NCBI RefSeq assembly: GCF_900112415.1
Contig: NZ_FOLV01000015.1
Coordinates: forward strand, 1-64,000
Length of the DNA stretch: 64,000 nt
Reading direction: 5' to 3'
From: Bacillus sp. 491mf
GTDB lineage: Bacteria; Bacillota; Bacilli; Bacillales; Bacillaceae_G
The notes under the pieces were generated by a model. That model was not told the DNA's origin, searched no databases, and saw only the letters and a list, made by a program, of their open reading frames with translations. Positions 14,807-53,756 of this stretch are shown piece by piece (position 1 is the first letter of the stretch; each line of letters opens with the position of its first letter). The position numbers and the translations under genes were made by a program.

Positions 14807-14897
14807 TAGAATGACAAAATCTTGTTCAATTAACGAGTGTTTCAGTTGAACAAAAAAATGAATGTTTTTATAAAAGAGTAATGTATTAGAATATGTT

Positions 14898-14944
14898 AAG
14901 AGCGTGTTTTGATTAATTTTTTTCAAAACACGCTCTTTCTTTTT
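14898..14944. terminator. Bidirectional terminator between GNAT and siderophore synthetase genes
   Basis: AAGAGCGTGTTTTGA and TCAAAACACGCTCTT form a 15-bp perfect stem with a 10-base loop and a T-rich tail. Confidence 0.8.
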
Positions 14945-14982
14945 GTTCGTTTATACAGAAGTCAAAAGAATTTGTTTCTATT

Positions 14983-16962
14983 TCAATCACTTAATGGGTT
15001 TTTAACTTTTACATAATAATAAGCATGAGCTTCTCCCATCATCCGCATAAGAGTTAAAGCTTTATAATCTACTTGATTTGCAAAAAAGATAGCATAGTCA
15101 GATATTGCACACTCTTTGTAGTTAGGATCTTCTTGTAAATCTACAAAAATATTGTGTAAAATTCGTTTTACTATATTCCATAGCAGTTGTTCATCAAATT
15201 CATAGAACTGACTGATATGCAAAAATAATTCCCCAAAGTGATTTTGCATGACAGAGTAGAACACTTTATTCCGCATACTTTTCTCATCATCTACTAAAAT
15301 TCTTGATTTATGATGAAACATGTTCAAATCAAATCCTGCATTTTGTAAACGGTTGCGATGAACCCGAATACCTTCCCAGTCACGTACGAGTAGTCGATCC
15401 GGTGTCCCATCTTTTTTAAAGACAGGAACTGTGTTTTGCAGGTGACCCTCTAAACCGATTCCGTATTTTACCATTAGTGGGATAAAACCGGTAAGGGCAT
15501 TTGTTACATATTTCTCTATGAATTGAACAACCGCATCTTGTAATGATAGGTCATAGTTCTCTTTATATAATTCAATTAGTTCTATTATGACTGGTTTATT
15601 TGTACCGTGCACAGAAGCGACAAGAGCAGATCCGACGATAGCCCATTCATCTTGATTCACATAAGCATGAATATTATCACGAATGACGCAAGCGAGGTTT
15701 TCACTCCGTAATGTTTGATATTCTTCGTCTACGTCATTTGGATGAAGAAAATGAGCGCCAGCTCGCTCCATAATGGGAACAAAACGATTTCCATCAATCA
15801 TTTTATCTTGCGTAACAATTTGTTTTAAAATGGTGCTCATAATTGGTCCGTTATGAATTGTTTGTTCTGATAATGTTCGTACTTCCCCGGTTAAATGAAT
15901 ATTTGTTGTTAGTTTATAATGGGGTCTAATCGTATCATACTTTGCAGGAAAGATTGTCCGAAATGACATCCCCGCCAAATATTTTGCTTTATAATCCAAT
16001 AAAATAATCATTTGTTTTTCAAGTTCAGTGCTATAAATTTCACGTAACGTATGAGTAGCTTGCCAAGGGTGAATTGGTAATAGGATATAGTCTTCTAGTT
16101 TATCACCAAGCTTCAGTTCGGCTTCTACTTGAAGTGCAGGTTCAAAAGAGAATAATACTGCATTCCAATTTTGTTCTTCCATAAAAGCTGAGCTTATGTA
16201 ATTTTGGTGTACAGCGACAAAGCAGAGTGGAATGGCATTTTTAAACTCCGCTGAATAAGCTAATGTTTCTTCTGGGCTTAAGCCCTTCCTCATTTTGGCA
16301 CCAGGGTGACAAGGGTGTCCTTCTATAACGAGCTGTTCGAAAAAGGCATAGGAATCTCGTGCCTGAGTAGCAGCTTGTAGCGTTGAAGTATTTTCAATTT
16401 GTTCATGAAATGTATAAGCAAGTGCTAAATTAGCAGCGCTATTTGTAACATCGTCTTCAAACATATGAAAATAAGTAGGAGATCCTTGCCAATCTTCTTG
16501 CATGAGCAAAGTCAATACTTCATTCGGATGCGTAATTTCTTTTTCATTTGATGGTGATACGAGAATATATGGTCCACTGATAACTGGTCGTTCAAAAGCA
16601 TATATGTGTTGAATCGGTATAAGCAGGTATGCGTTTTGCTTCTTGAAATATAGCCCTTGTATCATTGAAAACTCGTCAAATTGATGAGTGTGAGTATTTA
16701 TATAATCTAGTAAATAATCTGGGCAACGCTGTTCTGAAAATGAAGCAAACATTCCTTTATGTTTGCGAAGTAAAATCCCAGTCTCTGTCATATTACATAT
16801 ATTTTCACGTATGAAGGATGAGAGTAATCGTTCCAGTATACCAGCCCGTCCTTTTTGAATCATTTGTTGATAGGTTTCATGTAGTGGTGCGTGATGTTGT
16901 TGTAAAAAAGAAAGCAAGTTTTGTTCCTCTAATTCTAATGTTTGAATTGTATTGAGTTGCAT
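14983..16962 (-). CDS. sfaD: NIS siderophore synthetase, IucA/IucC family (SfaD-like)
   Basis: A 659-residue NRPS-independent siderophore synthetase. IucA/IucC landmarks are VIEGHPCHPGAKMRKGLS (about 215-232), LPIHPWQ, AGMSFRTIFPAKYDT, HGTNKP, and a C-terminal FhuF-like part with LEGHLQN and LVRDWEGIRVH. Such enzymes adenylate citrate and condense it with an amine. In staphylococci SfaD joins citrate to D-ornithine, the first step of staphyloferrin A. ATG 16962 follows AAAGGTGG by about 5 bases. It is divergent from the MFS-synthetase-racemase operon across a Fur box, exactly as sfaD is from sfaABC. Confidence 0.85.
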   Translation of the reverse strand: MQLNTIQTLELEEQNLLSFLQQHHAPLHETYQQMIQKGRAGILERLLSSFIRENICNMTETGILLRKHKGMFASFSEQRCPDYLLDYINTHTHQFDEFSMIQGLYFKKQNAYLLIPIQHIYAFERPVISGPYILVSPSNEKEITHPNEVLTLLMQEDWQGSPTYFHMFEDDVTNSAANLALAYTFHEQIENTSTLQAATQARDSYAFFEQLVIEGHPCHPGAKMRKGLSPEETLAYSAEFKNAIPLCFVAVHQNYISSAFMEEQNWNAVLFSFEPALQVEAELKLGDKLEDYILLPIHPWQATHTLREIYSTELEKQMIILLDYKAKYLAGMSFRTIFPAKYDTIRPHYKLTTNIHLTGEVRTLSEQTIHNGPIMSTILKQIVTQDKMIDGNRFVPIMERAGAHFLHPNDVDEEYQTLRSENLACVIRDNIHAYVNQDEWAIVGSALVASVHGTNKPVIIELIELYKENYDLSLQDAVVQFIEKYVTNALTGFIPLMVKYGIGLEGHLQNTVPVFKKDGTPDRLLVRDWEGIRVHRNRLQNAGFDLNMFHHKSRILVDDEKSMRNKVFYSVMQNHFGELFLHISQFYEFDEQLLWNIVKRILHNIFVDLQEDPNYKECAISDYAIFFANQVDYKALTLMRMMGEAHAYYYVKVKNPLSD

Positions 16963-17030
16963 AGAAACCACCTTTCTCAAGTTTTTCTATCTTTACAGAT
17001 AAAAAAGAATATTTTATAGTATTTTACATG

Positions 17031-17049
17031 GATAATGATAATCAATATC
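17031..17049. promoter_or_regulatory. Fur box in the sfaD/sfaA divergent promoter
   Basis: GATAATGATAATCAATATC matches the classical 19-base Fur consensus (GATAATGATAATCATTATC) at 18 of 19 positions. It lies 69 bases upstream of the minus-strand synthetase start and 44 bases upstream of the MFS start, so one site probably represses both directions when iron is plentiful. Confidence 0.85.
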
Positions 17050-17092
17050 AATTATAAAGAGTGCATGTGAAAATGCAACAAAAAATTTCGGG

Positions 17093-18286
17093 GTGGTTTT
17101 TATTCGTAAACTATTTTTTAGTAGTTCATTTTTCTTATTTATGGGGAATTGGCTTGGAATGACTGCGATCAATTGGTACGTCTATGACCTGTATCAGAGT
17201 GCTACATATTTAGGGTGGATTAACTTTGTAAGGCTGATTCCTATTGCATTGTTTAGTGTATATGCAGGGAAGCTTTGTGATCTGTATCCACGTATAAAGT
17301 TAATGAAGTCTTATTCATTCTGGGGGCTAGTGGTTACAACTCTACTTGCTATTTATGTTGTGCTTATTACTCCTTCTTTTTTTATTTTTCTTCTTTTTTC
17401 ATTTGTGAGAGGAGTAATAAGTGCATTAGAAACACCAAATCGGAATACACTACTTTCGGACATTGATACGAACAATCAAATTAGTAAATTAATATCTATG
17501 AATTCATTTGTAATGAATGTTTGCCGTTCAACAGGGCCTGCTGTAGCTGGATTTTTAATTGCAGGAGGACATATTGAGCTGACATTTGTGATGCAGGCAA
17601 TTTGTTCACTTATTGCTTTCATTCTCGTATTACCAATGAAAGATCGGACGATGAAAAAACGAAAAGAAAAGAAAAAAGCAAGCTGGGAACAAATTGTTCA
17701 ATATTTTTCTCATGATCATATGGGGAAAAATATTTTTATTACATCAATGATTACAATGGCTTTTGGCTTTTCGTATACGACTGTATTGCCTGTCCTTGTT
17801 TCTCATCAATTTACTGGAAAAGCGGAAGTGTTTGGCATTGCGATGTCTGCGGCAGCAATTGGTGCGATTATAGCAACGATTATTCTTCCGAGAATATTAG
17901 AGTATATTTCAGAAGTTAAGATTTATTACATGAGTTTACTTTTGTTTTCTATTAGTATAGCGCTTCTTATTATTAGTAATATATTTATGTTTTTTATACT
18001 ACTATTCTCTATCGGTCTTCTTGGACAGTTGTTACGTTCTAGTAATCGTGTCTATTTTCAAAACAATGTTCGTGAAGAAGAACGAGGTCTCATGCTTAGT
18101 GTTGTATTAATGGACCGAGGAATGATTCCGCTCGGTTCAATCGTAGTAAGTTATGCAATTGAATATGTAGGTATTTCTGAAACATTTGTAATGATGGGGA
18201 TTTTATGTATGATTCCATATGCATTTCAATATATAAAAGTGAAAAAACAAAACAGGAAGGTGAAGAATGTTGTCCATTCAAAGTAA
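17093..18286 (+). CDS. sfaA: MFS siderophore exporter (SfaA-like)
   Basis: A 397-residue protein with about 12 transmembrane helices and MFS motifs (YAGKLCDLYPRIKLM; CRSTGPAVAGF). Its position as first gene of the operon matches SfaA, the staphyloferrin A exporter of staphylococci. The start is uncertain: GTG 17093 has no clear ribosome-binding site. GGGGTGG at 17090-17096 is ideally placed for an in-frame ATT at 17102. An ATG at 17073 is out of frame and leads only to a 29-codon ORF. The 3' end overlaps the next synthetase gene by 20 bases. Confidence 0.8.
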   Translation: MVFIRKLFFSSSFFLFMGNWLGMTAINWYVYDLYQSATYLGWINFVRLIPIALFSVYAGKLCDLYPRIKLMKSYSFWGLVVTTLLAIYVVLITPSFFIFLLFSFVRGVISALETPNRNTLLSDIDTNNQISKLISMNSFVMNVCRSTGPAVAGFLIAGGHIELTFVMQAICSLIAFILVLPMKDRTMKKRKEKKKASWEQIVQYFSHDHMGKNIFITSMITMAFGFSYTTVLPVLVSHQFTGKAEVFGIAMSAAAIGAIIATIILPRILEYISEVKIYYMSLLLFSISIALLIISNIFMFFILLFSIGLLGQLLRSSNRVYFQNNVREEERGLMLSVVLMDRGMIPLGSIVVSYAIEYVGISETFVMMGILCMIPYAFQYIKVKKQNRKVKNVVHSK

Positions 18287-20075
18287 ACAATTAAATCAAG
18301 TACAAGCAGAATATCGTATTTTAAATCGTTTTTGTAATGCGTTAATTCGTGAGAAAAATGTATTAGAAGGTTGTGCTGTGCTAAAGCATGAGCATGGTAT
18401 TGAAATTATAGATTGTATGAATGAGGCAGAATTATTACTAGAAGTGCAACAAGAAGGGGCGTTTGAACGATACGAATTTGCTTTCCCAATTCGCTTTAAA
18501 GTAAGAGGGCATGTGAGATGGATTGATTCATTACAAGCATTTTTTGAGGAGGTAGCACCATTCTTTCAGCTTCATGTTTCAGATGCTCTGCAGAAAGAAT
18601 TATTGAATAGCGTTGAGAACTTAGCACTAGCATATGAGGCATGGGAACAAAAACAAGAATGGGTAAACCAACAACTCGAAACAAACATGATGTTTTTTGC
18701 GAAATACAAACCGAATAATTTATACCAGTTCTTTGAAGAATTAAAAAAATGTACGTCATTTGATGAATTATCATATACAGAGTCATTAGTGATTGAAGGA
18801 CATCCACTGCACCCTTCAACAAAGACGAAACTAGGTTTATCGAAAGAAGAAGTAAAGCGCTTTGCGCCTGAATTTGAACAAATTGTTCCATTACATGTAT
18901 TACTTGTTCATAAGGATGTAGCAGCAGTTACAGGAGATCGTTTTGAAAAAGCATTATTATATGAAGTTATGCCAGACTTATATGAAACAGCATATGAAAC
19001 ACTAGTAAATCAAAGAAAACAAATGGAGGATTATTATCCATTTCTTGTTCATCCGTGGCAATATGAACATGTGTTAACAAAGGAGTATGAGACTGATTTA
19101 GAGGAAGGGCGTATCATTCCGATTCCATATCAACTTTCGTCCCGGGCGACGCTTTCATTTCGAACGATGAATCTACTAGAATTGCCGTACCATGTAAAGC
19201 TTCCAGTACGCGCACAAGCTACGAGTGCAGTTAGAACGGTGTCACCAGAAATAACGGTAAACGGACCGATTCTTTCTTCACTGTTTGATACGATTTACGC
19301 AAATGAGAAAGAGTTATCACAATCAGTAGTAGTTGTTCGTGAACGAGTTGGAGCCACTTTTACGAAAAATAATGATGTTCATCTAGGAAGGAATCTCGCA
19401 TTTGTTTTACGAGAAAGTCCACATGTATATAAGCAAGAAGGAGAATTACTATGGGTTGGAGCTAGTTTAACCGCAAGTAATCCGTTAAAAGAAGATGAAC
19501 CAGTGATTGTAGATATTATGCGCACATATTTTGGAACAGAAACGATTAGCAAAAAAGAGGTATTTCATTACGTTGCTCATTATACAGAGAAAGTTATGAT
19601 TCCTTTACTACAGCTTGTTTTACAATATGGAATTGCATTAGAAGGGCATATGCAGAACTCTATTATTGTTACAAAGAAAGGAGAAATTCAGCGTATTTTT
19701 GTACGTGATTTAGGAGGCGTGCGAATTCATAAGAAGACATTGGTGAGAGTAGTAGATATTACGAATTTGAAAGAAGCAGTTGTATTTACGGATGATAGAA
19801 ATGAAGTTTATAACAAGTTTATTCATTCCGTATTACAAAACCACTTTGGAGATGTGTTATTTACGTTAGCTCGTGCGATAGACGACATACAGGAAAAAGA
19901 ATTATGGAGAATTATTGCTGCGATTGTAAAGGAGTATATGGAAGATGCAACAGAAGAGCAAAAAGCAGCTATCTTCGCAGCGCAAATTGAAACAAAAGCA
20001 TTGTTTTCAATGCGAATACAAGATCAAGCGAAATCTTATTTGTATACAAAGTTTCATAATCCACTTTGTATGTAG
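18267..20075 (+). CDS. sfaB: NIS siderophore synthetase, IucA/IucC family (SfaB-like)
   Basis: A 602-residue paralogue of the divergent synthetase. Family blocks are VIEGHPLHPSTKTKLGLS (about 174-191), LVHPWQYEH, SSRATLSFRTMNL, VRTVSPEITVNGP, LEGHMQNSI and FVRDLGGVRIH. In the staphyloferrin A pathway SfaB adds the second citrate to the citryl-ornithine made by SfaD. The start overlaps the MFS gene, giving translational coupling; GGAAGGTGAAG precedes ATG 18267. The two synthetases differ clearly, as expected for enzymes with different acceptors. Confidence 0.85.
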   Translation: MLSIQSKQLNQVQAEYRILNRFCNALIREKNVLEGCAVLKHEHGIEIIDCMNEAELLLEVQQEGAFERYEFAFPIRFKVRGHVRWIDSLQAFFEEVAPFFQLHVSDALQKELLNSVENLALAYEAWEQKQEWVNQQLETNMMFFAKYKPNNLYQFFEELKKCTSFDELSYTESLVIEGHPLHPSTKTKLGLSKEEVKRFAPEFEQIVPLHVLLVHKDVAAVTGDRFEKALLYEVMPDLYETAYETLVNQRKQMEDYYPFLVHPWQYEHVLTKEYETDLEEGRIIPIPYQLSSRATLSFRTMNLLELPYHVKLPVRAQATSAVRTVSPEITVNGPILSSLFDTIYANEKELSQSVVVVRERVGATFTKNNDVHLGRNLAFVLRESPHVYKQEGELLWVGASLTASNPLKEDEPVIVDIMRTYFGTETISKKEVFHYVAHYTEKVMIPLLQLVLQYGIALEGHMQNSIIVTKKGEIQRIFVRDLGGVRIHKKTLVRVVDITNLKEAVVFTDDRNEVYNKFIHSVLQNHFGDVLFTLARAIDDIQEKELWRIIAAIVKEYMEDATEEQKAAIFAAQIETKALFSMRIQDQAKSYLYTKFHNPLCM

Positions 20076-20089
20076 TAGGAGGAAGAAAC

Positions 20090-21187
20090 ATGATGCCTAT
20101 TATGAAAGTAAACCTTTCCAAATTAAAGCATAATGCGATGATGATGAAGCAATTATGTGAGCGCTCAAATTTAATGTGTTTTCCAGTGACAAAAGGGATC
20201 GGCGCTGCGAAAGAGGTAATTGAAACGCTTCAAGAGGCAAAGTATATAAGATTTGCTGATTCTAGATTGCAGCATCTTCATCACATTCGTTCTATTGTCG
20301 GAAAAGAAGCGGAGCTCTTATTAATTCGTACGCCAGCTTTGTCAGAAGTAGAAGAAACGGTGCTTTGTGCGGATATTAGTTTGAATTCTGAACTAAGTAT
20401 TATAGAAGCGTTAGGAAGAGCAGCGAGAACATATGGAAAAGTACATCGTGTCATTTTAATGGTTGATTTAGGTGATCTTCGCGAAGGAATGATGCCGCAT
20501 CAAGTGATAGAAGCAGCGCAAAGAGTATCGAATATACCTGGAATTGCACTCGATGGTATTGGAGCAAACTTTACTTGCTTTAGTGGTGTGATTCCAACTG
20601 AGAGTTCTTTGCAAGAACTAACGCAATTAACAAATTTAGTAGAAAAGAAAATAGGCGCACAACTTCGGTTTATCTCAGGAGGTAATTCAAGTTCGTTACC
20701 ACTAATTATGCAAAAACGACATATTGGACGGGTGAATTCTCTACGGATTGGAGAAGCTATTTTTCTAGGAAAAGAAACAGCTTATGGAAAAAATATTCCC
20801 TTTATGTATCAAGATGTATTTTCAATTGAAGCAGAAATCATCGAAATAAAAAGGAAGCCATCGATGCCAAGGGGAGTCATTGGAAGAGATGCGTTTGGCC
20901 AAGTTCCGTGTTTTGAAGATAAAGGAGAGCGACTACGGGCAATTGTTGCGATAGGAAAACAGGATCTTGATATTAACGGTTTACGAGCTTTTGATAAGAA
21001 TATCGAAATTCTTGGTGGAAGCAGTGATCATTTAATTGTTGATATAACGGATAGTACACCGCGCAGCATAGGGGACAAAATGACATTTGTTCCGGCGTAT
21101 AGTGCATTGCAAAGCGGTATGGTTTCTTCACTTGTACGAAAACAATATGTGTATGATGAAGTGCTGCAAAAAGCGCTTGTTTTATAA
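20090..21187 (+). CDS. sfaC: PLP-dependent alanine/ornithine racemase-like enzyme (SfaC-like)
   Basis: A 365-residue fold-type III PLP enzyme. The probable Schiff-base lysine is K35 in FPVTKGIG, followed by a TIM barrel (ILMVDLGDLREGM; FISGGNSSSLPL; NSLRIGEAIFLG) and a C-terminal beta domain ending near VPAYSALQ. The DLGDLREG and GGNSSS blocks fit the alanine/ornithine racemase group. In staphylococci SfaC is proposed to supply D-ornithine for staphyloferrin A. AGGAGG lies 7 bases before ATG 20090. It is the last biosynthetic gene before the importer genes. Confidence 0.8.
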   Translation: MMPIMKVNLSKLKHNAMMMKQLCERSNLMCFPVTKGIGAAKEVIETLQEAKYIRFADSRLQHLHHIRSIVGKEAELLLIRTPALSEVEETVLCADISLNSELSIIEALGRAARTYGKVHRVILMVDLGDLREGMMPHQVIEAAQRVSNIPGIALDGIGANFTCFSGVIPTESSLQELTQLTNLVEKKIGAQLRFISGGNSSSLPLIMQKRHIGRVNSLRIGEAIFLGKETAYGKNIPFMYQDVFSIEAEIIEIKRKPSMPRGVIGRDAFGQVPCFEDKGERLRAIVAIGKQDLDINGLRAFDKNIEILGGSSDHLIVDITDSTPRSIGDKMTFVPAYSALQSGMVSSLVRKQYVYDEVLQKALVL

Positions 21188-21287
21188 AATAAAGATCACA
21201 TCAGAGTATTATCTATAAATCATTTCAAAAAACATTTTTTTAGGAGAAAATGATAGACAATTTCTAAAATTATGCTATCATATTAAA

Positions 21288-21306
21288 TGAAAATGATTAT
21301 CAATAT
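21288..21306. promoter_or_regulatory. Fur box upstream of the siderophore importer
   Basis: TGAAAATGATTATCAATAT contains TGANAATGATTATCA, one mismatch from the 7-1-7 Fur core TGATAATNATTATCA. It lies 22 bases before the start of the binding-protein gene, so the importer has its own iron-regulated promoter. Confidence 0.8.
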
Positions 21307-21328
21307 TGCTGGTATGGGGGATTACATA

Positions 21329-22291
21329 ATGAATAGGAAAAAAATGAGTACTTTACTTGTAGCTATGTCATTAGCGGTGGGGGCGCTTGCTGGATGCAGT
21401 GGAGGAGCAAAAGAAACAGTTAAAAAAGAAGATAAAGCAGAAGCAAAAAATCAAGCAGGATCAGTAAAAATTAAACATGAGTGGGGAGAAACGGAGTTAA
21501 AAGAAACACCAAAAAATATAGTAACTCTTGACTTTTCATTTATTGATACATTAGTAGATTTAGGTGTTACACCAGTTGCAAATGCTGGAGTAGGAAAAAC
21601 GAAAATTCCAGAATATTTACAAGATAAAGCATCAAAAGTTAAAGATGTTGGGGAGCGAAAAGCACCGAACTTAGAAGTTATTTCATCTGTGAAACCAGAG
21701 TTAATTATTGCTAGTAAAGATCGTCACAATATGATTCAAAAAGAATTAAAAGATATTGCTCCAACAATTGCATTCGATGATAACAGCTATGAAGAAGTAA
21801 TGAAAAATATGGATACGATTGCTAAAGCAGTTGGAAAAGAAGAACAAGCGAAAAAGATTCGTACAGAATTACAAGATAAAATTTCAAAAGCAAAAGAGAA
21901 AGTAACAGGAAATCCAACGGTACTTGTAATTGGTGCTTTTGATGATGAATTTTCTGTATGGATTAAAGATTCATTTATTGGTTCGTTAATGACAGATGTT
22001 GGCGTGAAGTACGCATATGAAGGTAAAAAAGAAAAAACAGAAGGTAAAGCAGAAATTGCTAAAATTACGATGGAACGTCTAAATGAAATCAATCCAGACT
22101 ATATCTTCTTATATGGAGAAAACGTAGAGAAGTTTAAAAATAATCCGCTATACAATAACTTAAAAGCAGTGAAAGAAAAGCATGTAATTGATGTTGACCG
22201 TAATCTTTGGGCACGTGGACGCGGTCCAATTGCAGCAAATAAAATTTTAGATGAGGCACTTCCAGCATTAACAGGTCAGTCTTCTAAATAA
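21329..22291 (+). CDS. Iron-siderophore ABC transporter substrate-binding lipoprotein (HtsA-like)
   Basis: A 320-residue class III binding protein with a lipoprotein signal ending in LAGC (lipidated Cys 22), a linker rich in Lys/Glu, and the FecB/FhuD fold segments ITLDF-type VTLDFSFIDTLVDLG, VSSVKPELIIAS-like ISSVKPELIIASK and YIFLYGENVEKF. It probably captures the ferric form of the siderophore made next door, as HtsA does for staphyloferrin A. The start is set at ATG 21329 with GGGGG 8 bases upstream. It heads a four-gene import operon preceded by a Fur box. Confidence 0.85.
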   Translation: MNRKKMSTLLVAMSLAVGALAGCSGGAKETVKKEDKAEAKNQAGSVKIKHEWGETELKETPKNIVTLDFSFIDTLVDLGVTPVANAGVGKTKIPEYLQDKASKVKDVGERKAPNLEVISSVKPELIIASKDRHNMIQKELKDIAPTIAFDDNSYEEVMKNMDTIAKAVGKEEQAKKIRTELQDKISKAKEKVTGNPTVLVIGAFDDEFSVWIKDSFIGSLMTDVGVKYAYEGKKEKTEGKAEIAKITMERLNEINPDYIFLYGENVEKFKNNPLYNNLKAVKEKHVIDVDRNLWARGRGPIAANKILDEALPALTGQSSK

Positions 22292-22304
22292 GGAGTTGGA
22301 GACT

Positions 22305-23336
22305 TTGTATCATTCACAAACTAGAAGCAGACGGGCGTTACACCCGTATGCTTCTTCTACTTTGCAATTTATTTTCTTTTTTCTACTATTAATAATGGTT
22401 GGAGCTCTCTCTGCATTATTTCGTGTAAAAGGATTATCATTTCATAACATAACAGAAGTATTTGCAACGGATACGAAAAATTTAATTTACTATACAGTTT
22501 GGCAAGTACGTGTACCACGTGTCGTGCTAGGCGCTTTACTTGGCGCGGCATTAGCTGTTGCCGGATGTCTCTTACAAGGGATTACGCGAAATCCGTTATC
22601 TGATCCAGAAAATATGGGAATCAATCAAGGAGCTTCTTGTTTTGTTGTCATTGCCCTTTTAATTTTTGGAGAGAAGGATACGAGTTTCGTTATTTTACTA
22701 GCAGCATTTCTCGGGGCTGCTGCAGGTGGGAGTGTGATTTATTCATTAGCATTTCGTGGTGAATATACGCCTTCACGTCTTGTACTTGCTGGCATTGCAG
22801 TGAGTCTATTTCTTGGATCATTAACGACAGGAGCGATTTTGTTATACGAAACACAATTAACAGAAATTTTATATTGGATGGCTGGAAAGTTATCAGGGGC
22901 AAATTGGCAAGATATAAAAATGATGGTAGTATCGGCAGTTCCTGTTATGGTTTTTGTTTTTTTTCTAGCAAATCAATTAAATATTTTATCACTTGGTGAA
23001 GAGACAGCGCGTGGACTTGGTGTAAATGTACTTTTGATTCGGAGAGTATTTGCGTTTTTCGTTGTTCTTCTTGTCGGTAGTGCAGTTGCGGTAGCTGGAC
23101 CGATTGGTTTTATCGGACTCATAGTTCCGCATATTGCAAGAAAACTAATTGGTCAAGATTATCGAATTATTTTACCATTTTCAGCATTGCTCGGCGCTAA
23201 TCTTCTTGTCATCGCAGATTTTGCAGCGCAGTGGGTGTCTTATCCAGCAGAGACGCCTGTTGGTGTTATAACAGCACTATTAGGTACACCATTCTTCATT
23301 TATTTAATGAGAAGGAAGCGAGGTGCTGTGAAATGA
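22305..23336 (+). CDS. FecCD-family siderophore ABC permease (first subunit)
   Basis: A 343-residue permease with about nine to ten helices. FecCD/BtuC marks are VRVPRVVLGALLGAALAVAG, the ITRNPLSDPENMGIN loop, and the coupling segment GPIGFIGLIVPHIARKL near the C-terminus. It forms the membrane channel with the next permease. TTG 22305 is preferred over TTG 22296 because AAGGAG (22290-22295) is 9 bases upstream of it. The end overlaps the next start by 4 bases (ATGA). Confidence 0.85.
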   Translation: MYHSQTRSRRALHPYASSTLQFIFFFLLLIMVGALSALFRVKGLSFHNITEVFATDTKNLIYYTVWQVRVPRVVLGALLGAALAVAGCLLQGITRNPLSDPENMGINQGASCFVVIALLIFGEKDTSFVILLAAFLGAAAGGSVIYSLAFRGEYTPSRLVLAGIAVSLFLGSLTTGAILLYETQLTEILYWMAGKLSGANWQDIKMMVVSAVPVMVFVFFLANQLNILSLGEETARGLGVNVLLIRRVFAFFVVLLVGSAVAVAGPIGFIGLIVPHIARKLIGQDYRIILPFSALLGANLLVIADFAAQWVSYPAETPVGVITALLGTPFFIYLMRRKRGAVK

Positions 23337-24310
23337 AGAAGTTCGGCCGGTTTACAATTGTTATAATAGTAGGATTTATATTGCTAATTGCGCTTTCTTT
23401 GCTAAGTTTGCGGCTTGGGGCTGTACCAACACCACTTGCTGAGATTATAGAAGGACTGATGAGAGGAGAAGGTGTTGTACTAAAATATCGTTTGCCGCGG
23501 CTTATTATAGCGATTTTAGTTGGAGTTAACATGGCCTTATCTGGATCGATTTTACAAAGTGTAACACGAAATCCGCTTGCAGCACCTGATATTATTGGAG
23601 TTTCTGCTGGTGGAGGATTAGCAGCTGTTATTATGCTCCTTATGTTTCCAAGTGTACCAGCAATTATGCTCCCTATTGCTGCATTTGCCGGGGCAATGAT
23701 TGCGAGTTTGCTAGTGTATGTATTATCGTATCAAAAGGGAGGAGTAGAACCGGAACGTCTTGCACTTTGCGGAGTTGCTATTTCTACGGGTTTACAGGCT
23801 CTTATTACATTTATTATTGTGAAATTTGCGGTTGATTCCTCACAAGCTCTTGTATGGCTAAAGGGAAGTTTATATGCAAGATCTTGGGAACATGTTGATA
23901 TGCTATGGCCATGGACAATAATTGGAGCGGCTATTACATTTATAAGTTATAAGCAAATTAACCTTTTATTATTAAATGAAGAAACAGTAAAGGGGTTAGG
24001 TATGCGTATCAATGTTGTTCGTCTTGTGCTGATCGGCGTAGCTGTTGCTTTAGCTGCAAGTTCAGTAGCAGTAGCGGGGACAATTAGTTTTGTGGGGCTT
24101 GTTATCCCACATGCGGCGCGTCTACTTGTTGGATCGGATAGTAGATTGTTCTTACCAATTTCAGCATTACTCGGTGCATTACTCGTTACGGGGGCAGATA
24201 TGGTAGGAAGGATTATTATCCCGCCAATTGAAATACCAGCTGGTATTATTACAGCACTCATTGGCGCACCATATTTTATATATTTACTCGTCATTAGAAA
24301 AGGAACATAG
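23333..24310 (+). CDS. FecCD-family siderophore ABC permease (second subunit)
   Basis: A 325-residue permease paralogous to the preceding one, with YRLPRLIIAILVGVNMALSG, VTRNPLAAPDIIGVSAGG and the coupling segment GTISFVGLVIPHAARLLVG. It starts at ATG 23333 overlapping the previous stop, which signals translational coupling and heterodimer assembly. The frame extending back to 23231 overlaps the first permease and is not used. Confidence 0.85.
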   Translation: MKKFGRFTIVIIVGFILLIALSLLSLRLGAVPTPLAEIIEGLMRGEGVVLKYRLPRLIIAILVGVNMALSGSILQSVTRNPLAAPDIIGVSAGGGLAAVIMLLMFPSVPAIMLPIAAFAGAMIASLLVYVLSYQKGGVEPERLALCGVAISTGLQALITFIIVKFAVDSSQALVWLKGSLYARSWEHVDMLWPWTIIGAAITFISYKQINLLLLNEETVKGLGMRINVVRLVLIGVAVALAASSVAVAGTISFVGLVIPHAARLLVGSDSRLFLPISALLGALLVTGADMVGRIIIPPIEIPAGIITALIGAPYFIYLLVIRKGT

Positions 24311-24340
24311 TCTCCTATAAAAAAATAAGGAGTGAACAAG

Positions 24341-25162
24341 ATGACTAGTTTACATACGGAACAACTGGAACTTACGTATGGAAATCAAACGATTATTAAT
24401 CATCTCGATCTATATATTCCAGAAGGGAAAATTACGGCACTTGTTGGCCGAAATGGATGCGGAAAGTCAACGATTTTAAAATCGTTAGCACGGCTACTGC
24501 AACCAACTAAGGGTCACGTATATTTAGATGGTAAAGCAATTCATACGATGCCAACAAAAGAAGTATCAAAGAAATTGGCAATTTTACCACAATCACCGAC
24601 AGCACCCGAAGGATTAACGGTAGAAGGTCTCGTTTGGCATGGACGTTATCCGCATCAGCGTTTGCTTGGAAAGCGAACGGATAAAGACTATGAAATGGTA
24701 AACTGGGCACTTGAAGTAACTGGAATGAATCAATTTACAGATCGTACATTAGATGAATTGTCAGGCGGACAGCGTCAGCGCGTTTGGATTGCGATGGCAC
24801 TTGCGCAAGATACGGAATTATTATTATTAGATGAACCGACTACGTACTTGGATATGGCCCACCAGTTAGAAGTATTAGAGTTATTGAAAAAGTTAAATGA
24901 AGAAGAAAATCGAACGGTTGTTATGGTTGTACATGATTTAAATCATGCAGCTAAATATGCGCATCACATTGTTGCGATTAAAGATGGAGATAAAGTAATG
25001 GAAGGAGCACCAAATGAGATTTTAAATGATGAGTTGTTTGAAACAGTGTTTGGTGTGAAAGCGCGTGTTGTGTATGATCCAGTTGCGATGACATATATGT
25101 GTACACCGTATGCATTACTTTCAGAGAAAAAAGAACAGCAAAAAGAAAGAATTGTTGGATAA
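24341..25162 (+). CDS. Iron-siderophore ABC transporter ATP-binding protein
   Basis: A 273-residue ATPase with Walker A GRNGCGKST near residue 37, signature LSGGQRQR, Walker B LLLLDEPTTYLD and H-loop VVHDLNH. It belongs to the FepC/FhuC/FecE group. It energises the two FecCD permeases. The S. aureus hts operon lacks its own ATPase and borrows FhuC, so this importer is more self-contained. AAGGAG lies 8 bases ahead of ATG 24341. A terminator follows immediately. Confidence 0.9.
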   Translation: MTSLHTEQLELTYGNQTIINHLDLYIPEGKITALVGRNGCGKSTILKSLARLLQPTKGHVYLDGKAIHTMPTKEVSKKLAILPQSPTAPEGLTVEGLVWHGRYPHQRLLGKRTDKDYEMVNWALEVTGMNQFTDRTLDELSGGQRQRVWIAMALAQDTELLLLDEPTTYLDMAHQLEVLELLKKLNEEENRTVVMVVHDLNHAAKYAHHIVAIKDGDKVMEGAPNEILNDELFETVFGVKARVVYDPVAMTYMCTPYALLSEKKEQQKERIVG

Positions 25163-25165
25163 AAG

Positions 25166-25198
25166 AACTGTTGAGAAAAGATTCTCAGCAGTTTTTTT
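25166..25198 (+). terminator. Terminator of the siderophore importer operon
   Basis: AACTGTTGAGAA pairs with TTCTCAGCAGTT around a 4-base loop, then seven T. Confidence 0.8.
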
Positions 25199-25204
25199 AT
25201 CGGG

Positions 25205-25280: not shown

Positions 25281-25331
25281 AGAAGTGCACCCCAATTGTT
25301 AGACTGTGTCTAACAATTGGGGTGCACTTCT
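25281..25331. repeat. Perfect 24-bp inverted repeat with 3-base loop
   Basis: AGAAGTGCACCCCAATTG then TTAGAC (25281-25304) is followed by TGT and the exact reverse complement (25308-25331). No T run follows, so it is a poor terminator. It could be two insertion-sequence ends joined head to head, or a MITE-like remnant. It is the main content of the 347-base gap before the DinB-like gene. Confidence 0.7.
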
Positions 25332-31863: not shown

Positions 31864-33141
31864 ATGAAAATAACTCGAGTCTTTTTTCTCTTTTGTATCA
31901 TTTTTTTAAGTTGTTCATTCCATACTTATGCACAGGATACGTTGCAATCTCAAATTGACGCTGCTTCTGAATATGGAATCGTAAAAATACCGAGTGGTAA
32001 TTATGATGAAGCAATCGTTCTTTCAAAGCCTATTACTTTGGAAGGGACGGGAGAAGTTATTGTTCGCTCTTGTCGTAAAGAACCCGTTATTACGGTAAAA
32101 GGACAATCTGTCACCTTGAAGCATATAAAGGTAGAACAATGCAGTAGTAGGGCAGACACGGAAGCTATTCATGTTACAGGTAAGAATCATCGGTTGAAAA
32201 ATCTTCAAATCTACACAAAGCAGTTCGGGATTAAATTAAATAGGGCGAGTGATACGGTAGTAGAAGGTAGTTTGATTAAAGGGAATTCTAAAGGAAATGG
32301 AATTGACTTATGGGAATCAAATAACAATATGATTCAAGGGGTCGAGATTGATAAAGTAAGAGATGGCATTTATATAGAAAATAGTCATTTTAATCGAATA
32401 ACTCGTAATGCTATCGGAAATTCTCGTTATGGCATACATATTATGTTTTCAAATCAAATAACCGTACAGAATAACAAGTCTCACAACAATATTACAGGTG
32501 CAATGGTGATGGGAACAAAAGAAACGAAAATTGAAAGGAACGAGTTAACTTTCAATAATCGTAATGTTAATGCACAGGGTTTATTGCTGTATGATGCAGA
32601 GAACACGGAAACGATTGGAAATCGAATTTCTAATAATCGTGTAGGGATGTATGTGGAAAATGCGAATAACAACCAGATTTCAGATAATGAAGTAACTGAG
32701 AATTTTATTGGCATGCAATTTAAAAATGCGAATGAAAATCATGTGTCTGACAATGTCTTTGTTGGAAATGTAAATGAATCTCAAGCGATAAACAGCAATG
32801 AAAACGAAATTATACATAATTATTGGGACGCATCATTGAAACTGGATACAAAGGGAAATGGTATGAGCAGCATTCCGCATAGAGCAGATCCATTTTTTCT
32901 AACATTAACAAATGAAGTCCCAGAATATCAACTGTTTTTCCAAGCGCCTGGTATGATTGTACTCCAAACATTGTTGAAAAGTCCTGAAAGTCGAGTTTTA
33001 ACTGATTATGAACCTATGATGACAACTAGAGGAAAAAAGGAAGAAAACAATTCCTCATTTAAGATGCAAATTGGAATGATCAGTGTAAGTATGTTAGCAA
33101 TAAGTATCACTTTATTTAAAATTGGGAGGAAAAGAAGATGA
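31864..33141 (+). CDS. nosD: NosD-like periplasmic-type copper/sulfur delivery protein
   Basis: A 425-residue protein with a signal peptide (residues 1-23, cleaved after YAQ), a parallel beta-helix of repeats of about 22 residues (GIKLNRASDTVVEGS; GIDLWESNNNMIQG; GIYIENSHFNRITRN; GMYVENANNNQISDN) and a C-terminal transmembrane helix (about 400-418). This matches NosD of nitrous oxide reductase clusters, where it acts with the NosFY transporter in assembly of the CuZ site. It overlaps nosL by 4 bases. No nosZ is within the window, so its client is unknown. Confidence 0.85.
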   Translation: MKITRVFFLFCIIFLSCSFHTYAQDTLQSQIDAASEYGIVKIPSGNYDEAIVLSKPITLEGTGEVIVRSCRKEPVITVKGQSVTLKHIKVEQCSSRADTEAIHVTGKNHRLKNLQIYTKQFGIKLNRASDTVVEGSLIKGNSKGNGIDLWESNNNMIQGVEIDKVRDGIYIENSHFNRITRNAIGNSRYGIHIMFSNQITVQNNKSHNNITGAMVMGTKETKIERNELTFNNRNVNAQGLLLYDAENTETIGNRISNNRVGMYVENANNNQISDNEVTENFIGMQFKNANENHVSDNVFVGNVNESQAINSNENEIIHNYWDASLKLDTKGNGMSSIPHRADPFFLTLTNEVPEYQLFFQAPGMIVLQTLLKSPESRVLTDYEPMMTTRGKKEENNSSFKMQIGMISVSMLAISITLFKIGRKRR

Positions 33142-33656
33142 AATTGAAAGGTTTATTGATTACAATAGTTGCAGCTCTTTTATTGACAGTAGTTGGCTGC
33201 GGGAAAAAGGAAGTTAAGCCAGTAGCAATTGACGAGAAAAATGATAAATGTGCCAATTGTAATATGCTTGTGACGAATGATCAATTCGGAACAGAAGTAA
33301 TTCTTGAAAACGGTAAATCATTAAAATTTGATGACCTTGGTTGTATGTACAAATGGATGAATAAAAATAAGAATGAAAAGTTGCAAGCAAAATTTGTACG
33401 TGATTACAATTCAAAAGAGTGGGTTGAAGTAGACAAAGCGACTTATGTTTATGACAAAGATATTAAAACACCAATGGCTTATAATGTGATTTCATTCAAA
33501 GATAAAAAAGACGCGGACAGCTTTGTCTCCAAAAATAAAGGTGAAGTGTTAACTGCAAAAGAGTTGGAAAAGCATGAATGGACAAAGAACATGGATATGA
33601 TGATGAAAATAAAAGAAGAGAATGCAAAGAAAAAGGATATGAATCATTCTCATTAA
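33138..33656 (+). CDS. nosL: NosL-like copper-binding lipoprotein
   Basis: A 172-residue lipoprotein: signal peptide with lipobox VVGC (Cys 21), then the NosL copper site CANCNM near residue 37 and KSLKFDDLGCMYKWM. The C-terminus ends in a His/Lys/Met-rich tail (MDMMMKIKE, DMNHSH) that could also bind copper. NosL delivers Cu(I) to NosZ maturation in denitrifiers. The start overlaps the nosD stop (ATGA). A terminator-like hairpin follows before nosY. Confidence 0.88.
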   Translation: MKLKGLLITIVAALLLTVVGCGKKEVKPVAIDEKNDKCANCNMLVTNDQFGTEVILENGKSLKFDDLGCMYKWMNKNKNEKLQAKFVRDYNSKEWVEVDKATYVYDKDIKTPMAYNVISFKDKKDADSFVSKNKGEVLTAKELEKHEWTKNMDMMMKIKEENAKKKDMNHSH

Positions 33657-33659
33657 TAA

Positions 33660-33691
33660 AAAAAGGATAACCGTTCTGGTTGTCCTTTTTT
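33660..33691 (+). terminator. Terminator-like hairpin between nosL and nosY
   Basis: AAAAAGGATAACC pairs with GGTTGTCCTTTTT with a 5-base loop. It lies inside what otherwise looks like one operon and may reduce nosYF expression relative to nosDL. Confidence 0.7.
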
Positions 33692-33708
33692 ACGGAAAGA
33701 GGGATTTT

Positions 33709-34521
33709 ATGTGGCACATTTGGCAATCTGAGTGGCGAATCACGATAAGACAACGTTCATCTTATACATTTGTCATTCTTTGGACGAGTGTTATGTCGTT
33801 ACTATTTTTACTAGGGCGAAATTCACCTACTATAACTGGATACACAAATATGACAGGTACAATGGCGAATTTAGTGTTGTATATTATACCGCTATTTATG
33901 CTTATTATCATTTCTTTTTCTATCGCAAATGAAATGGAAAACGGACAGTGGCGGTTATTAAGTACGTATCCTATTTCTAGTGTTGCATACGTAATGGGAA
34001 AAGCATTCGGACAATTTACAGCGCAGCTTATTATTTTTACGCTAAGTTATGGTATAAGTCTTCTAATCGGTCTTGTTAGTGGAAGTGCGCTATCTATGAA
34101 ATGGATACTGGCTCTTTATGTATTCTCAATCGTATTAATGCTATTCTTTCTAATAATTGGTGTTGTGATCGGTTCTTTTGTCGTAACAAGATGGCAGGCA
34201 CTAACTATATCTGTTGGGGTTTGGTTTTTCTTCATTATGATTTGGCCTACTGCGCTTATCGCTGTTCTTAACTTTGTTCCGTATCCGATGATTGCTGTGC
34301 TTCTAAAAGTAGCTTTATTTCTTAATCCCGCTGAATTGCTTCGTATCGTATTCGTTGTTCAATTAGGTGGTGGTGCAATATTTGGACAAGCATATGATTC
34401 TCTCGTTACCTTTTTACAATCTGAGGCGGCGTGGGGCGTTCTCATTTTATATACAGTAATATATATGACATTTGGTTTTGCTCTATCTGCATGGAAGCTA
34501 GAAAGGAGAAAGATGCAATGA
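33709..34521 (+). CDS. nosY: NosY-like ABC transporter permease
   Basis: A 270-residue ABC-2 type permease with six transmembrane segments, starting MWHIWQSEWRITIRQR and containing the EMENGQWRLLSTYPISS loop. It partners the NosF ATPase, and with NosD the complex is thought to move a sulfur species or copper for cofactor assembly. The stop overlaps the ATPase start by 4 bases. AAAGAGGG lies upstream of ATG. Confidence 0.82.
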   Translation: MWHIWQSEWRITIRQRSSYTFVILWTSVMSLLFLLGRNSPTITGYTNMTGTMANLVLYIIPLFMLIIISFSIANEMENGQWRLLSTYPISSVAYVMGKAFGQFTAQLIIFTLSYGISLLIGLVSGSALSMKWILALYVFSIVLMLFFLIIGVVIGSFVVTRWQALTISVGVWFFFIMIWPTALIAVLNFVPYPMIAVLLKVALFLNPAELLRIVFVVQLGGGAIFGQAYDSLVTFLQSEAAWGVLILYTVIYMTFGFALSAWKLERRKMQ

Positions 34522-35237
34522 CACTTTTACAAGTTACAGAGGTTTCAAAAGAATATAAGACAAAACAAGCACTCTCTCACTTTTCACTTCAAGTAGAAGC
34601 AGGAACGTGTATCGTACTATGCGGCGGGAACGGTGCAGGAAAAAGTACACTTCTTCATATATTGGCAGGTATTTCAAGACCGACAGATGGAACGATTGTA
34701 TTGAATGGTATTGCTCTTCATGAAAATAGGACTGCATACGTGTCACAAATTGGATATATGCCAGATGACTTCCATGCGCAGGAAATGATGACTGTGCATG
34801 AATTTCTTACCTTTTATGGTGTATTACGAAAGGTAAGAGGGCAACAAATACAAGAAATTTTAGAAAAGATCGGTTTAATTGAAAAGAGGAATGAACTTGT
34901 AAAACATTTATCAAAGGGAATGCGGCAACGATTAGTATTTGGACAAGCATTGTTAGGGGAGCCAAAACTATTATTATTAGATGAACCGACAAATGGTTTA
35001 GATCCATATTGGGTCAATGCATTTGTTGAGGTTTTACAGGACATTAAGAAGATGGGGACAATTGTTATTTTTTCTACACATATGATGGACGTGGCAGCGG
35101 AAATAGGAGATTGTATTTTGTTTATGAAAGATGGGATCGTGACAAATCGTATTGAACATAAGGGGAGTAAAGAAGAAAAAACACTACACTTGATGCAATT
35201 GCACCGGCAGGGATGGAACCAAAACGATTTCATATAA
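34518..35237 (+). CDS. nosF: NosF-like ABC transporter ATP-binding protein
   Basis: A 239-residue ATPase with Walker A GGNGAGKST near residue 37, signature LSKGMRQR, Walker B LLLLDEPTNGLD and H-loop STHMMD. It energises NosY. ATG 34518 is chosen because GAAAGGAGAAAG precedes it and it overlaps the nosY stop; the frame back to 34431 is inside nosY. It is the fourth gene of the nosDLYF set. Confidence 0.85.
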   Translation: MTLLQVTEVSKEYKTKQALSHFSLQVEAGTCIVLCGGNGAGKSTLLHILAGISRPTDGTIVLNGIALHENRTAYVSQIGYMPDDFHAQEMMTVHEFLTFYGVLRKVRGQQIQEILEKIGLIEKRNELVKHLSKGMRQRLVFGQALLGEPKLLLLDEPTNGLDPYWVNAFVEVLQDIKKMGTIVIFSTHMMDVAAEIGDCILFMKDGIVTNRIEHKGSKEEKTLHLMQLHRQGWNQNDFI

Positions 35238-43060: not shown

Positions 43061-43089
43061 AACATACAAATGGAAAATTTTACAGCCGA

Positions 43090-43212
43090 ATATCGCTTAA
43101 TCCAATAGGAGCGGGGGAACCAATTTTGTGCTTTGTCACTCGGGGTGAATCCTTTTTAGGTAGGGCTACTCTCAAGGTCCGAATCCGACAGCTAACCTCG
43201 TCAGCGTTTTGA
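43090..43212 (+). ncRNA. c-di-AMP riboswitch (ydaO/yuaA class)
   Basis: The order of conserved ydaO/yuaA elements is intact: ATCGCTTAATCC, AGGAGCGGGGGAACCAA, a short stem, then GGGGTGAATCC, GGTAGGGCTACTCTC, GGTCCGAATCCGACAGCT and AACCTCGTCAGCG. This class binds c-di-AMP and switches genes off by termination. It precedes a strong terminator and kdpA, and c-di-AMP normally represses potassium uptake, so it should silence kdpA when potassium and c-di-AMP are high. Confidence 0.9.
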
Positions 43213-43232
43213 GAGGGGGGACTTGTGTGTAA

Positions 43233-43264
43233 AAAACACTAGGTGCGGCCTAGTGTTTTCTTTT
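43233..43264 (+). terminator. Riboswitch expression-platform terminator
   Basis: AAAACACTAGG pairs with CCTAGTGTTTT around TGCGG, followed by CTTTT. It lies 20 bases after the riboswitch core and upstream of the kdpA start, consistent with c-di-AMP-dependent termination. Confidence 0.85.
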
Positions 43265-43350
43265 ATTCTCTTTATGGTAAAAATTTACAATTAAACTTAT
43301 TTCTATATGTAATGGAGAAAAATATAGAGATAACAGAGGAGAGGAAAAGA

Positions 43351-49729: not shown

Positions 49730-50401
49730 GTGAATGTTAGTAGGAGAATTTCCGTACTAACAAACATGAAGATAAAAGTATTAATAGCTGATGATAACTC
49801 TTTTATTAGAGAAGGAATGAAAATCATTTTAAGTACATACGAAGAATTTGAAGTGCTAGAAACAGTAAATGATGGACAAGAGGCTTTAGATTATTGCAAA
49901 AAACATGATGTAGATATTGCGCTTTTAGATGTACGTATGCCAAATATGAACGGTGTGGAAGCAACGAAATTCATTTGTGAACAAACAAAAACAAAGCCGC
50001 TTATTTTAACGACATTTGATGATGACGAATACATTTTAGAGGCGGTGAAAAATGGGGCAAAAGGTTATTTATTAAAGAATAATGATCCAGAGCGAATTCG
50101 AGATGCACTTAAAAGCGTATATCACGGACATACTGTGATGCAAGATGTAGTCCTTGATAAAATTAAATCAAACTTACAAGAAAATAAAGAAGAGTTGAAG
50201 ATAGATAAGAGTCTTTTCACAGAAAGAGAGCTTAGTATTATTGCTCATATCGCTAAAGGCTTTTCGAATAAAGAGATTTCAAAACAGCTTTTTATATCAG
50301 AAGGGACGATTGCGAATTATATTACATCAATTCTGAATAAAACAGGGCTTGAGCATCGTACGCAAATTGCCATTTACTATTTAACAGGAACTGTGGATTA
50401 G
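49730..50401 (+). CDS. NarL/FixJ-type response regulator
   Basis: A 223-residue protein. The receiver domain has an acidic pair (IADDNSF), phospho-acceptor Asp in ALLDVRMPNMNG and Lys in GYLLKNNDP. The C-terminal LuxR helix-turn-helix reads FTERELSIIAHIAKGFSNKEI followed by SEGTIANYITSILNK. The start may be GTG 49730 (GGAG 7 bases before) or ATG 49766. The kinase gene follows 4 bases later but is truncated. Confidence 0.85.
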   Translation: MNVSRRISVLTNMKIKVLIADDNSFIREGMKIILSTYEEFEVLETVNDGQEALDYCKKHDVDIALLDVRMPNMNGVEATKFICEQTKTKPLILTTFDDDEYILEAVKNGAKGYLLKNNDPERIRDALKSVYHGHTVMQDVVLDKIKSNLQENKEELKIDKSLFTERELSIIAHIAKGFSNKEISKQLFISEGTIANYITSILNKTGLEHRTQIAIYYLTGTVD

Positions 50402-53682: not shown

Positions 53683-53724
53683 AGGTTCACCTATATCATG
53701 TGATTAAGCTTTTATACATACAAA

Positions 53725-53739: not shown

Positions 53740-53756
53740 TGGAGGGGATGAAATAC

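What the first reader, a model, noticed from the sequence alone, without database searches (positions are those of the whole stretch)
14983..25162. Staphyloferrin-A-like biosynthesis, export and import island in a B. cereus-group genome
Two IucA/IucC synthetases, an MFS exporter and an ornithine/alanine-racemase-like enzyme keep the staphylococcal sfa layout (sfaD divergent from sfaABC). An hts-like importer follows directly, and Fur boxes lie at 17031 and 21288. The usual B. cereus-group siderophores are petrobactin and bacillibactin, so a third, citrate-ornithine type carboxylate siderophore would be notable. The importer also carries its own ATPase, unlike S. aureus hts.
Basis: partly seen in the sequence, partly recalled or inferred. 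Interest (0 to 1): 0.75.

Follow-up and report, generated by a model that had tools for sequence, protein, structure and literature searches.

The report
Staphyloferrin-A-type iron-scavenging island in Bacillaceae
A bacillus-like bacterium carries the gene set that staphylococci use to make and export the iron carrier staphyloferrin A, joined to an iron importer of a different lineage that brings its own energy subunit.

Summary
At 14983-25162 lie two IucA/IucC (NIS) synthetases, an MFS exporter, an ornithine-racemase-like enzyme and a complete ABC importer; the window's only two good Fur boxes sit in the two control gaps. Both synthetases fall inside the SfaD and SfaB clades (SH-aLRT 100 each), the exporter in the SfaA clade. 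The divergent sfaD / sfaB-sfaC order recurs in 18 of 18 staphylococcal-type loci examined, and three Bacillales genomes have all eight genes. A staphyloferrin-A-type pathway (two citrates on D-ornithine) is the best reading; the product is untested.

Two points need correction. The importer groups with a stand-alone Sutcliffiella halmapala importer and that of one high-GC sfa locus, apart from staphylococcal HtsABC (100/100), and its receptor lacks several HtsA pocket residues. And 'B. cereus-group genome' is not shown: no genome is held; the nearest lineage sampled is the family of Ectobacillus panaciterrae. 'Third siderophore' cannot be checked.

Verdict: a real sfa-type locus, a new variant of a known kind, with its own ATPase and a divergent importer.

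The parts
14983..16962 (-). sfaD-like NIS synthetase (first citrate-ornithine condensation, inferred); ORF listed to 16980, likely ATG at 16962
   Evidence: PF04183 209 bits, PF06276 92 bits; in the 22-row SfaD clade, SH-aLRT 100; 29 of 29 near-invariant NIS columns kept
17030..17050 (.). two overlapping Fur-box-like sites between the divergent transcripts
   Evidence: 17036-17050 1 mismatch, 17030-17044 2 mismatches; 0 of 100 shuffles have two sites at <=1 mismatch in the window
17093..18286 (+). sfaA-like MFS exporter (start codon uncertain)
   Evidence: MFS_1/MFS_3; in a 15-row clade with 10 staphylococcal-type SfaA, SH-aLRT 100
18267..20075 (+). sfaB-like NIS synthetase (second citrate, inferred)
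   Evidence: PF04183 195 bits; in the 23-row SfaB clade, SH-aLRT 100
20090..21187 (+). sfaC-like PLP enzyme of the ornithine-racemase (Orr) kind, supplies D-ornithine (inferred)
   Evidence: NF040742 Orr 389 bits, cut-off 480; groups with Orr-type enzymes
21288..21302 (.). Fur-box-like site upstream of the importer genes
   Evidence: 1 mismatch; similar sites at the same place in relatives
21329..22291 (+). ferric-siderophore binding lipoprotein (HtsA/FecB-like)
   Evidence: best PDB match HtsA 3eiw, 119 bits, with 6all close behind at 115; clade with L268 and L136
22296..23336 (+). FecCD-type permease 1
   Evidence: PF01032 323 bits
23333..24310 (+). FecCD-type permease 2
   Evidence: PF01032 308.5 bits; ATG at 23333 overlaps the end of permease 1
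24341..25162 (+). ABC importer ATPase (FecE-like)
   Evidence: PF00005 121 bits; best NCBIfam model FecE 319 bits, cut-off 375
25158..25201 (+). terminator-like hairpin after the ATPase gene
   Evidence: 20-pair stem with T-rich tail

Best explanation
An iron-repressed (Fur) make-export-recapture locus for a staphyloferrin-A-type carboxylate siderophore. The racemase-like enzyme turns L-ornithine into D-ornithine; the SfaD-like synthetase joins one citrate to it; the SfaB-like synthetase joins the second citrate; the SfaA-like MFS protein exports the product; and a four-gene ABC importer (binding lipoprotein, two permeases, own ATPase) brings the ferric complex back. Shown here: gene content, placement of both synthetases and the exporter in the sfa clades, conserved order, two Fur-box-like sites. 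Inferred: the reactions, the product, the importer's ligand, the regulation.
For: Synthetase clades; 13 of 13 SfaD-specific fixed columns kept. Layout: sfaD-like gene divergent from sfaB-sfaC in 18 of 18 staphylococcal-type regions, MFS between in 13 of 18, importer genes next in 14 of 18 (regions were picked by a racemase match). Full eight-gene layout with ATPase in L185 and L186, and in G456 split over two contigs (L187, L188): the three best of 397 Bacillales genomes searched with the SfaD-like protein. That the reference loci are staphylococcal-type rests on L138's binding protein matching S. aureus HtsA with 398 bits. Orr-kind racemase. Fur-box-like sites. Literature: SfaD and SfaB make staphyloferrin A from citrate, D-ornithine and ATP (PMC3326035 passages).
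Against: No product, expression or enzyme data. The SfaB relation is deep: best identity 43%, and only 1 of 2 SfaB-specific fixed columns is kept. The racemase scores below the Orr cut-off and lies apart from staphylococcal-type SfaC. The importer is not in the HtsABC clade and its receptor has changed HtsA pocket residues, so the ferric ligand could differ.
Confidence: 0.75

Rival explanations
1. A staphyloferrin A relative with another bridging amino acid or stereochemistry (for example lysine, as in corynebactin of C. diphtheriae, or L-ornithine), read by a matching, different receptor.
For: Binding protein lacks Arg86, Phe146, His209, Tyr239 and Tyr244 of HtsA and lies outside the HtsABC clade; the SfaB branch is long; a dicitryl-lysine siderophore exists (PMC3326035 passages).
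Against: The racemase is closest to ornithine-racemase-type enzymes; all 13 SfaD-specific columns are kept; five HtsA arginine positions are kept.
Confidence: 0.2
2. The importer is a ferric citrate (Fec-type) transporter that happens to sit next to an sfa-type biosynthesis operon and is not dedicated to its product.
For: Best NCBIfam models are the ferric dicitrate binding protein, FecC and FecE for the binding protein, first permease and ATPase (all under cut-off); the nearest relative, L268 of Sutcliffiella halmapala, stands without sfa genes.
Against: Own Fur-box-like site; same position as hts in 14 of 18 staphylococcal-type regions; the same importer type sits in a second sfa locus, L136; the best solved-structure match is HtsA, though only by 119 against 115 bits.
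Confidence: 0.15
3. The locus belongs to the tandem-synthetase, decarboxylase-linked (rhizoferrin-like) group found in other Bacillales.
For: One set of those synthetases is the nearest outgroup of SfaD; NCBIfam FslA (rhizoferrin) is the top model for both window synthetases, at 223 and 208 bits against a cut-off of 1000.
Against: The tree places both window synthetases outside all 29 tandem rows; the window has a racemase-like gene and no decarboxylase, unlike the four tandem loci scanned.
Confidence: 0.03

Closest known systems
sfaABCD + htsABC of Staphylococcus (staphyloferrin A)
   Same: Same SfaD, SfaB and SfaA clades, same gene order, Fur-box-like sites at the same places in most gaps checked
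   Different: Synthetases 31-38% identical to the staphylococcal-type ones; racemase of Orr kind, apart from staphylococcal-type SfaC; importer of another clade and with its own ATPase gene
Eight-gene sfa-type loci in three unnamed Bacillales genomes (L185, L186, L187/L188)
   Same: Same eight genes in the same order with ATPase (in G456 cut by contig ends); SfaD 48-54%, SfaB 42%
   Different: Their binding proteins keep His209, Tyr239 and Tyr244 of HtsA and their importers do not join the window's clade
sfa-type locus L136 of an unnamed high-GC (0.57) genome of class Bacilli
   Same: SfaD 46%, SfaB 38%, SfaC 47%, ATPase present, importer of the same clade
   Different: No MFS gene between sfaD and sfaB; the MFS gene of L136 lies elsewhere and groups elsewhere
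Stand-alone importer of Sutcliffiella halmapala (L268)
   Same: Closest importer: 51/50/63% for binding protein and permeases
   Different: No ATPase and no synthetase match in the 18-kb region; the two synthetases found in that genome lie outside the sfa clades
Ornithine racemase Orr of Clostridia
   Same: 43% identity to an Acetoanaerobium noterae homologue; 389 bits on NF040742
   Different: Under the curated cut-off; genetic context is siderophore synthesis

Membership tests
Staphyloferrin A biosynthesis locus (sfa) | Two NIS synthetases, one of the SfaD and one of the SfaB clade | tested here: met
   22-row and 23-row clades, SH-aLRT 100 each, short-search tree of 86 rows without bootstrap
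Staphyloferrin A biosynthesis locus (sfa) | sfaD divergent from sfaA-sfaB-sfaC | tested here: met
   Window coordinates
Staphyloferrin A biosynthesis locus (sfa) | SfaA-type MFS exporter | tested here: met
   15-row clade, SH-aLRT 100; one row of it (L189) is from a tandem locus, so the clade is not wholly confined to sfa
Staphyloferrin A biosynthesis locus (sfa) | SfaC-type amino acid racemase | tested here: inconclusive
   Homologue in place, but it lies on the side of the Orr-type enzymes (17 rows) apart from 13 staphylococcal-type SfaC
Staphyloferrin A biosynthesis locus (sfa) | Product: two citrates on D-ornithine, 480 Da | not testable with these tools
   Needs chemistry
Ornithine racemase Orr (NF040742) | Score at or above the curated cut-off (480 bits) | tested here: not met
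   389 bits
HtsABC importer | Binding protein and permeases in the HtsABC clade | tested here: not met
   Clade with L136 and L268, 100/100. The deep order is unresolved: a tree with the nine other stand-alone importers held together, which leaves Hts and the window clade on one side, is not rejected (p-AU 0.27)
HtsABC importer | HtsA contact residues (Arg104, Arg126, Phe146 and His209 named in a paper seen; Arg86, Tyr239, Tyr244, Arg299, Arg304, Arg306 recalled) | tested here: inconclusive
   Kept: Arg 104, 126, 299, 304, 306. Not kept: Arg86 (Lys), Phe146, His209 (Trp), Tyr239, Tyr244. Arg86, Phe146 and Arg304 also vary among loci of staphylococcal type (L142, L146)
HtsABC importer | No ATPase in the operon (FhuC is used) | tested here: not met
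   ATPase gene at 24341-25162; no ATPase match in the 18 staphylococcal-type regions
Bacillus cereus group (host) | Close identity to B. cereus-group core genes | tested here: inconclusive
   No genome held; nearest sampled lineage 76-79% in MaeA; B. cereus YfiY reaches only 73% in that family, so its 19 genomes seem to hold no B. cereus-group member

The most novel reading that the evidence does not exclude
The sfa biosynthesis core is a module that travels with exchangeable receptors: in this lineage and in L136 it is paired with a different, self-powered importer whose pocket has diverged, so that the cell makes a private variant of staphyloferrin A that HtsA-bearing staphylococci would take up poorly.
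Probability: 0.2. Interest if true: 0.6.

Novelty: new variant of a known kind. Interest (0 to 1): 0.42.

Why it matters
Staphyloferrin A is generally treated as a staphylococcal trait (recalled; sfa is reported as present in all staphylococcal species analysed, PMC12709192 passages). Co-linear loci with synthetases of the same clades in this window and in three of 397 sampled Bacillales genomes show that the pathway is wider, that its racemase may come from an ornithine racemase, and that synthesis and uptake modules can be matched differently. It also gives a self-contained importer for comparing receptor specificity with HtsA.

Tried and rejected
Gene order around fumC is little shared with the 80 named loci or 11 family regions, while the transporter-aspA-maeA-sensor-regulator order (53700-60738) is shared with two regions of that family (L291, L292) and in part with a third (L290). 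No species name results. A single-sequence scan of genome contigs with the racemase-like protein found no relative; it needs exact octapeptides and is weak evidence of absence.

Horizontal transfer: G+C of the island (0.33-0.39) is like the rest of the window (0.31-0.39); no tRNA in the window. A palindrome and a shared terminator-like hairpin beside the island were seen but not resolved.

The importer was first taken as HtsABC; the trees led me to drop that. Holding all sfa-linked importers as one group was rejected (p-AU 4.6e-61), but that test also forces L268 out of its own clade, so I rely on milder tests: window + L136 as a pair is not rejected (p 0.107), Hts + L185/L186/L188 as a group is not rejected (p 0.54), the nine other stand-alone importers as a group are not rejected (p 0.27), and window + L136 + L268 + L185/L186/L188 as a group is not rejected (p 0.32). 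L278, a long branch, also joins the window's side.

Literature: the lists show no title or abstract start that reports an sfa-type cluster in Bacillaceae. One search listed 25 of 105 papers, most were not opened, and most subscription journals are not held, so this is not proof of absence. Passages only were seen of PMC10553834, PMC3326035, PMC9598555, PMC7337064, PMC7857480, PMC10740426, PMC12403628, PMC13293324, PMC12709192, PMC9352062, PMC11865118, PMC10700112 and PMC12160565. Where these name the producer or gene source of staphyloferrin A it is Staphylococcus or Staphylococcaceae; PMC10740426 and PMC12160565 list petrobactin and bacillibactin for B. cereus-group strains.

Rows dropped or not taken: of 44 strong racemase matches (E 2e-48 or better), 19 were fetched as regions, 13 were seen only as 4-kb loci without sfa neighbours and 12 were not looked at. 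Of 45 genomes, 18 had their synthetase region fetched. One search left out one SfaD row identical to another (L141) and the short SfaD piece of L188. One search used 10 importer sets from 9 of the 14 staphylococcal-type loci that have one, and 11 of the 12 stand-alone regions (not L273). Searches also left out L278. One search used 13 of 18 staphylococcal-type SfaC, 11 of the 13 stand-alone loci L087-L099, and L211. No structure prediction was run.
Full report
What is there. Between 14983 and 25162 the window holds eight open genes: an IucA/IucC synthetase on the minus strand, then on the plus strand an MFS transporter, a second IucA/IucC synthetase, an alanine-racemase-fold enzyme, a siderophore-type binding lipoprotein, two FecCD permeases and an ABC ATPase. 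Both synthetases keep all 29 near-invariant columns of an 86-row NIS alignment. The genes are packed as two divergent transcripts, and the second permease overlaps the first by a few bases. A terminator-like hairpin with a 20-pair stem follows the ATPase gene.

Regulation. Only two sites in 64 kb match the Fur-box core with at most one mismatch: 17036-17050, between the divergent transcripts, and 21288-21302, just before the importer genes. None of 100 shuffles gave two such sites; at three mismatches the number is no more than chance. I then scanned 21 matching gaps (each with 40 bases on either side) in 12 related loci, not all that I had: 18 of 21 hold a site with at most two mismatches, and the three without one are the sfaD-sfaA gaps of L142 and L146 and the sfaD-sfaB gap of L155 (no shuffle control was run for these). 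Repression by Fur is a sound inference but is not shown.

Relatives. A search of 398 genomes of class Bacilli with the racemase-like protein gave matches in 72, of which 44 places are strong (E 2e-48 or better) and the rest weak. Of the 44, 13 were stand-alone racemase genes in 4-kb loci (L087-L099), 19 were fetched as regions together with the tandem pair of G001, and 12 were not examined. In 18 of 18 staphylococcal-type regions (G+C 0.30-0.38) the sfaD-like gene is divergent from sfaB-sfaC; 13 of 18 have the MFS gene between them, 14 of 18 have the importer genes next, and none of the 18 has an ATPase match. A search of 397 Bacillales genomes with the SfaD-like protein (45 with E at or under 1e-40) gave three far better than the rest, G439, G471 and G456. 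All three have the same eight genes including the ATPase, in G456 cut by contig ends. The nineteenth region, L136 from a high-GC genome, has both synthetases, racemase, importer and ATPase but no MFS gene in the usual place.

Trees. In a tree of 86 synthetases the window's SfaD-like protein lies in a 22-row SfaD clade and its SfaB-like protein in a 23-row SfaB clade, SH-aLRT 100 for each. The 29 rows from other Bacillales synthetase loci (tandem pairs, one single) and the 12 outgroup rows lie outside (short search, no bootstrap; SfaD/SfaB labels within sfa loci were given by the better BLAST score, the other labels by locus). Best identities are 55% for SfaD (a partial row) and 43% for SfaB. 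Of columns fixed in the other clade members and rare elsewhere the window keeps 13 of 13 for SfaD but 1 of 2 for SfaB. The exporter lies in a 15-row clade with 10 staphylococcal-type SfaA; one row of that clade comes from a tandem locus. The racemase-like enzyme lies with the Orr-type enzymes and the Bacillales sfa racemases, apart from 13 staphylococcal-type SfaC. It scores 389 bits on the ornithine racemase model, against 380 for L136 and 233-264 for the four staphylococcal-type SfaC scanned, with a cut-off of 480. This favours ornithine as substrate but does not prove it.

The importer. Binding protein and permeases of the window are 51/50/63% identical to a stand-alone importer of Sutcliffiella halmapala (L268, genome G003), 49/50/56% to those of L136, and 32-34/31-36/35-40% to the ten staphylococcal-type sets. 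In the concatenated tree window, L136 and L268 form a clade at 100/100, apart from HtsABC and from nine other stand-alone Bacillales importers; a tenth, L278, joins the window's side on a long branch. How these blocs are ordered is unresolved: a tree with the nine together is not rejected (p-AU 0.27), so a shared origin of Hts and the window's importer is still possible. Whether L268 or L136 is closer is also open (p-AU 0.107 for window + L136). In an alignment with HtsA the window's receptor keeps arginines 104, 126, 299, 304 and 306 but not Arg86, Phe146, His209, Tyr239 or Tyr244; L136 is alike except that it keeps Arg86. L185, L186 and L188 keep His209, Tyr239 and Tyr244 but not Phe146, and some of the kept positions vary even in staphylococcal-type loci (L142 and L146: Asn86, Leu146, Lys304). 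Arg104, Arg126, Phe146 and His209 are named as HtsA contacts in PMC10553834 (passages); the other positions are recalled. 'Hts-like' is thus right as a description of place and likely role, not as orthology. Among solved structures HtsA is the best match, but only by 119 against 115 bits for 6all.

How it most likely works. L-ornithine to D-ornithine (racemase), citrate onto D-ornithine (SfaD type), second citrate (SfaB type), export (SfaA type), recapture by the four-part importer, all under Fur. The order of the two condensations is that shown for S. aureus (PMC3326035 passages); its transfer to this locus is inference from the trees.

Host. No genome is held for the window. MaeA is closest to the family of Ectobacillus panaciterrae (76-79%; other Bacillales above the threshold 70% or less), and the transporter-aspA-maeA-sensor-regulator order is shared with two regions of that family. 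B. cereus YfiY reaches at most 73% in that family, so those 19 genomes seem to include no B. cereus-group member; the window could still be one. The host claim of the title is open, and with it the claim of a third siderophore.

Novelty and score. The kind is known (staphyloferrin A locus). The variant is not reported in the listings and passages that I saw (and the passages named in Tried and rejected): outside staphylococci, Orr-kind racemase, self-powered importer of another clade. Interest 0.42: useful for siderophore specialists and testable, but not a new kind of system.

Noticed in passing
window 25285-25327: A perfect palindrome with 20-bp arms just after the island; similar sites of about 50-60 bases occur in 11 plasmid records of Priestia, Peribacillus, Paenibacillus and Niallia, one annotated as an IS3 family transposase. 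It may be an IS remnant or an IS-linked terminator.
   Followed up: partly
window 14885-14955: A stretch with a terminator-like hairpin just before the island is shared (91.7% over about 70 bases) with a Priestia flexa plasmid and less closely with 12 other Bacillaceae plasmid records.
   Followed up: partly
window 43084-45018: A c-di-AMP riboswitch (97 bits) precedes an ORF whose sequence looks like KdpA (by eye, no family scan made); the next ORF listed downstream (45176) does not look like kdpB.
   Followed up: no
window 50406-51134: A 242-residue sensor-kinase-like ORF directly after a response-regulator-like ORF (49730-50401) ends early and may be truncated (by eye only).
   Followed up: no
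L137, L189-L199, L201, L202 (Bacillales genomes): Tandem NIS synthetase pairs, in most of these loci with an MFS gene and a ~400-aa ORF beside them; the four such ORFs scanned (L189, L190, L192, L195) are Orn/DAP/Arg-type decarboxylases. This resembles the N-citryl-ornithine decarboxylase logic of Francisella rhizoferrin (PMC7857480 passages) and may be a rhizoferrin-like pathway in Bacillales.
   Followed up: partly
L144 and L151 (staphylococcal-type genomes): Two hts-like importers stand in tandem behind sfaC.
   Followed up: no
window 31864-35237: ORFs that by eye look like nosD, nosL and an ABC permease/ATPase pair, suggesting a nitrous-oxide or copper-handling operon fragment.
   Followed up: no
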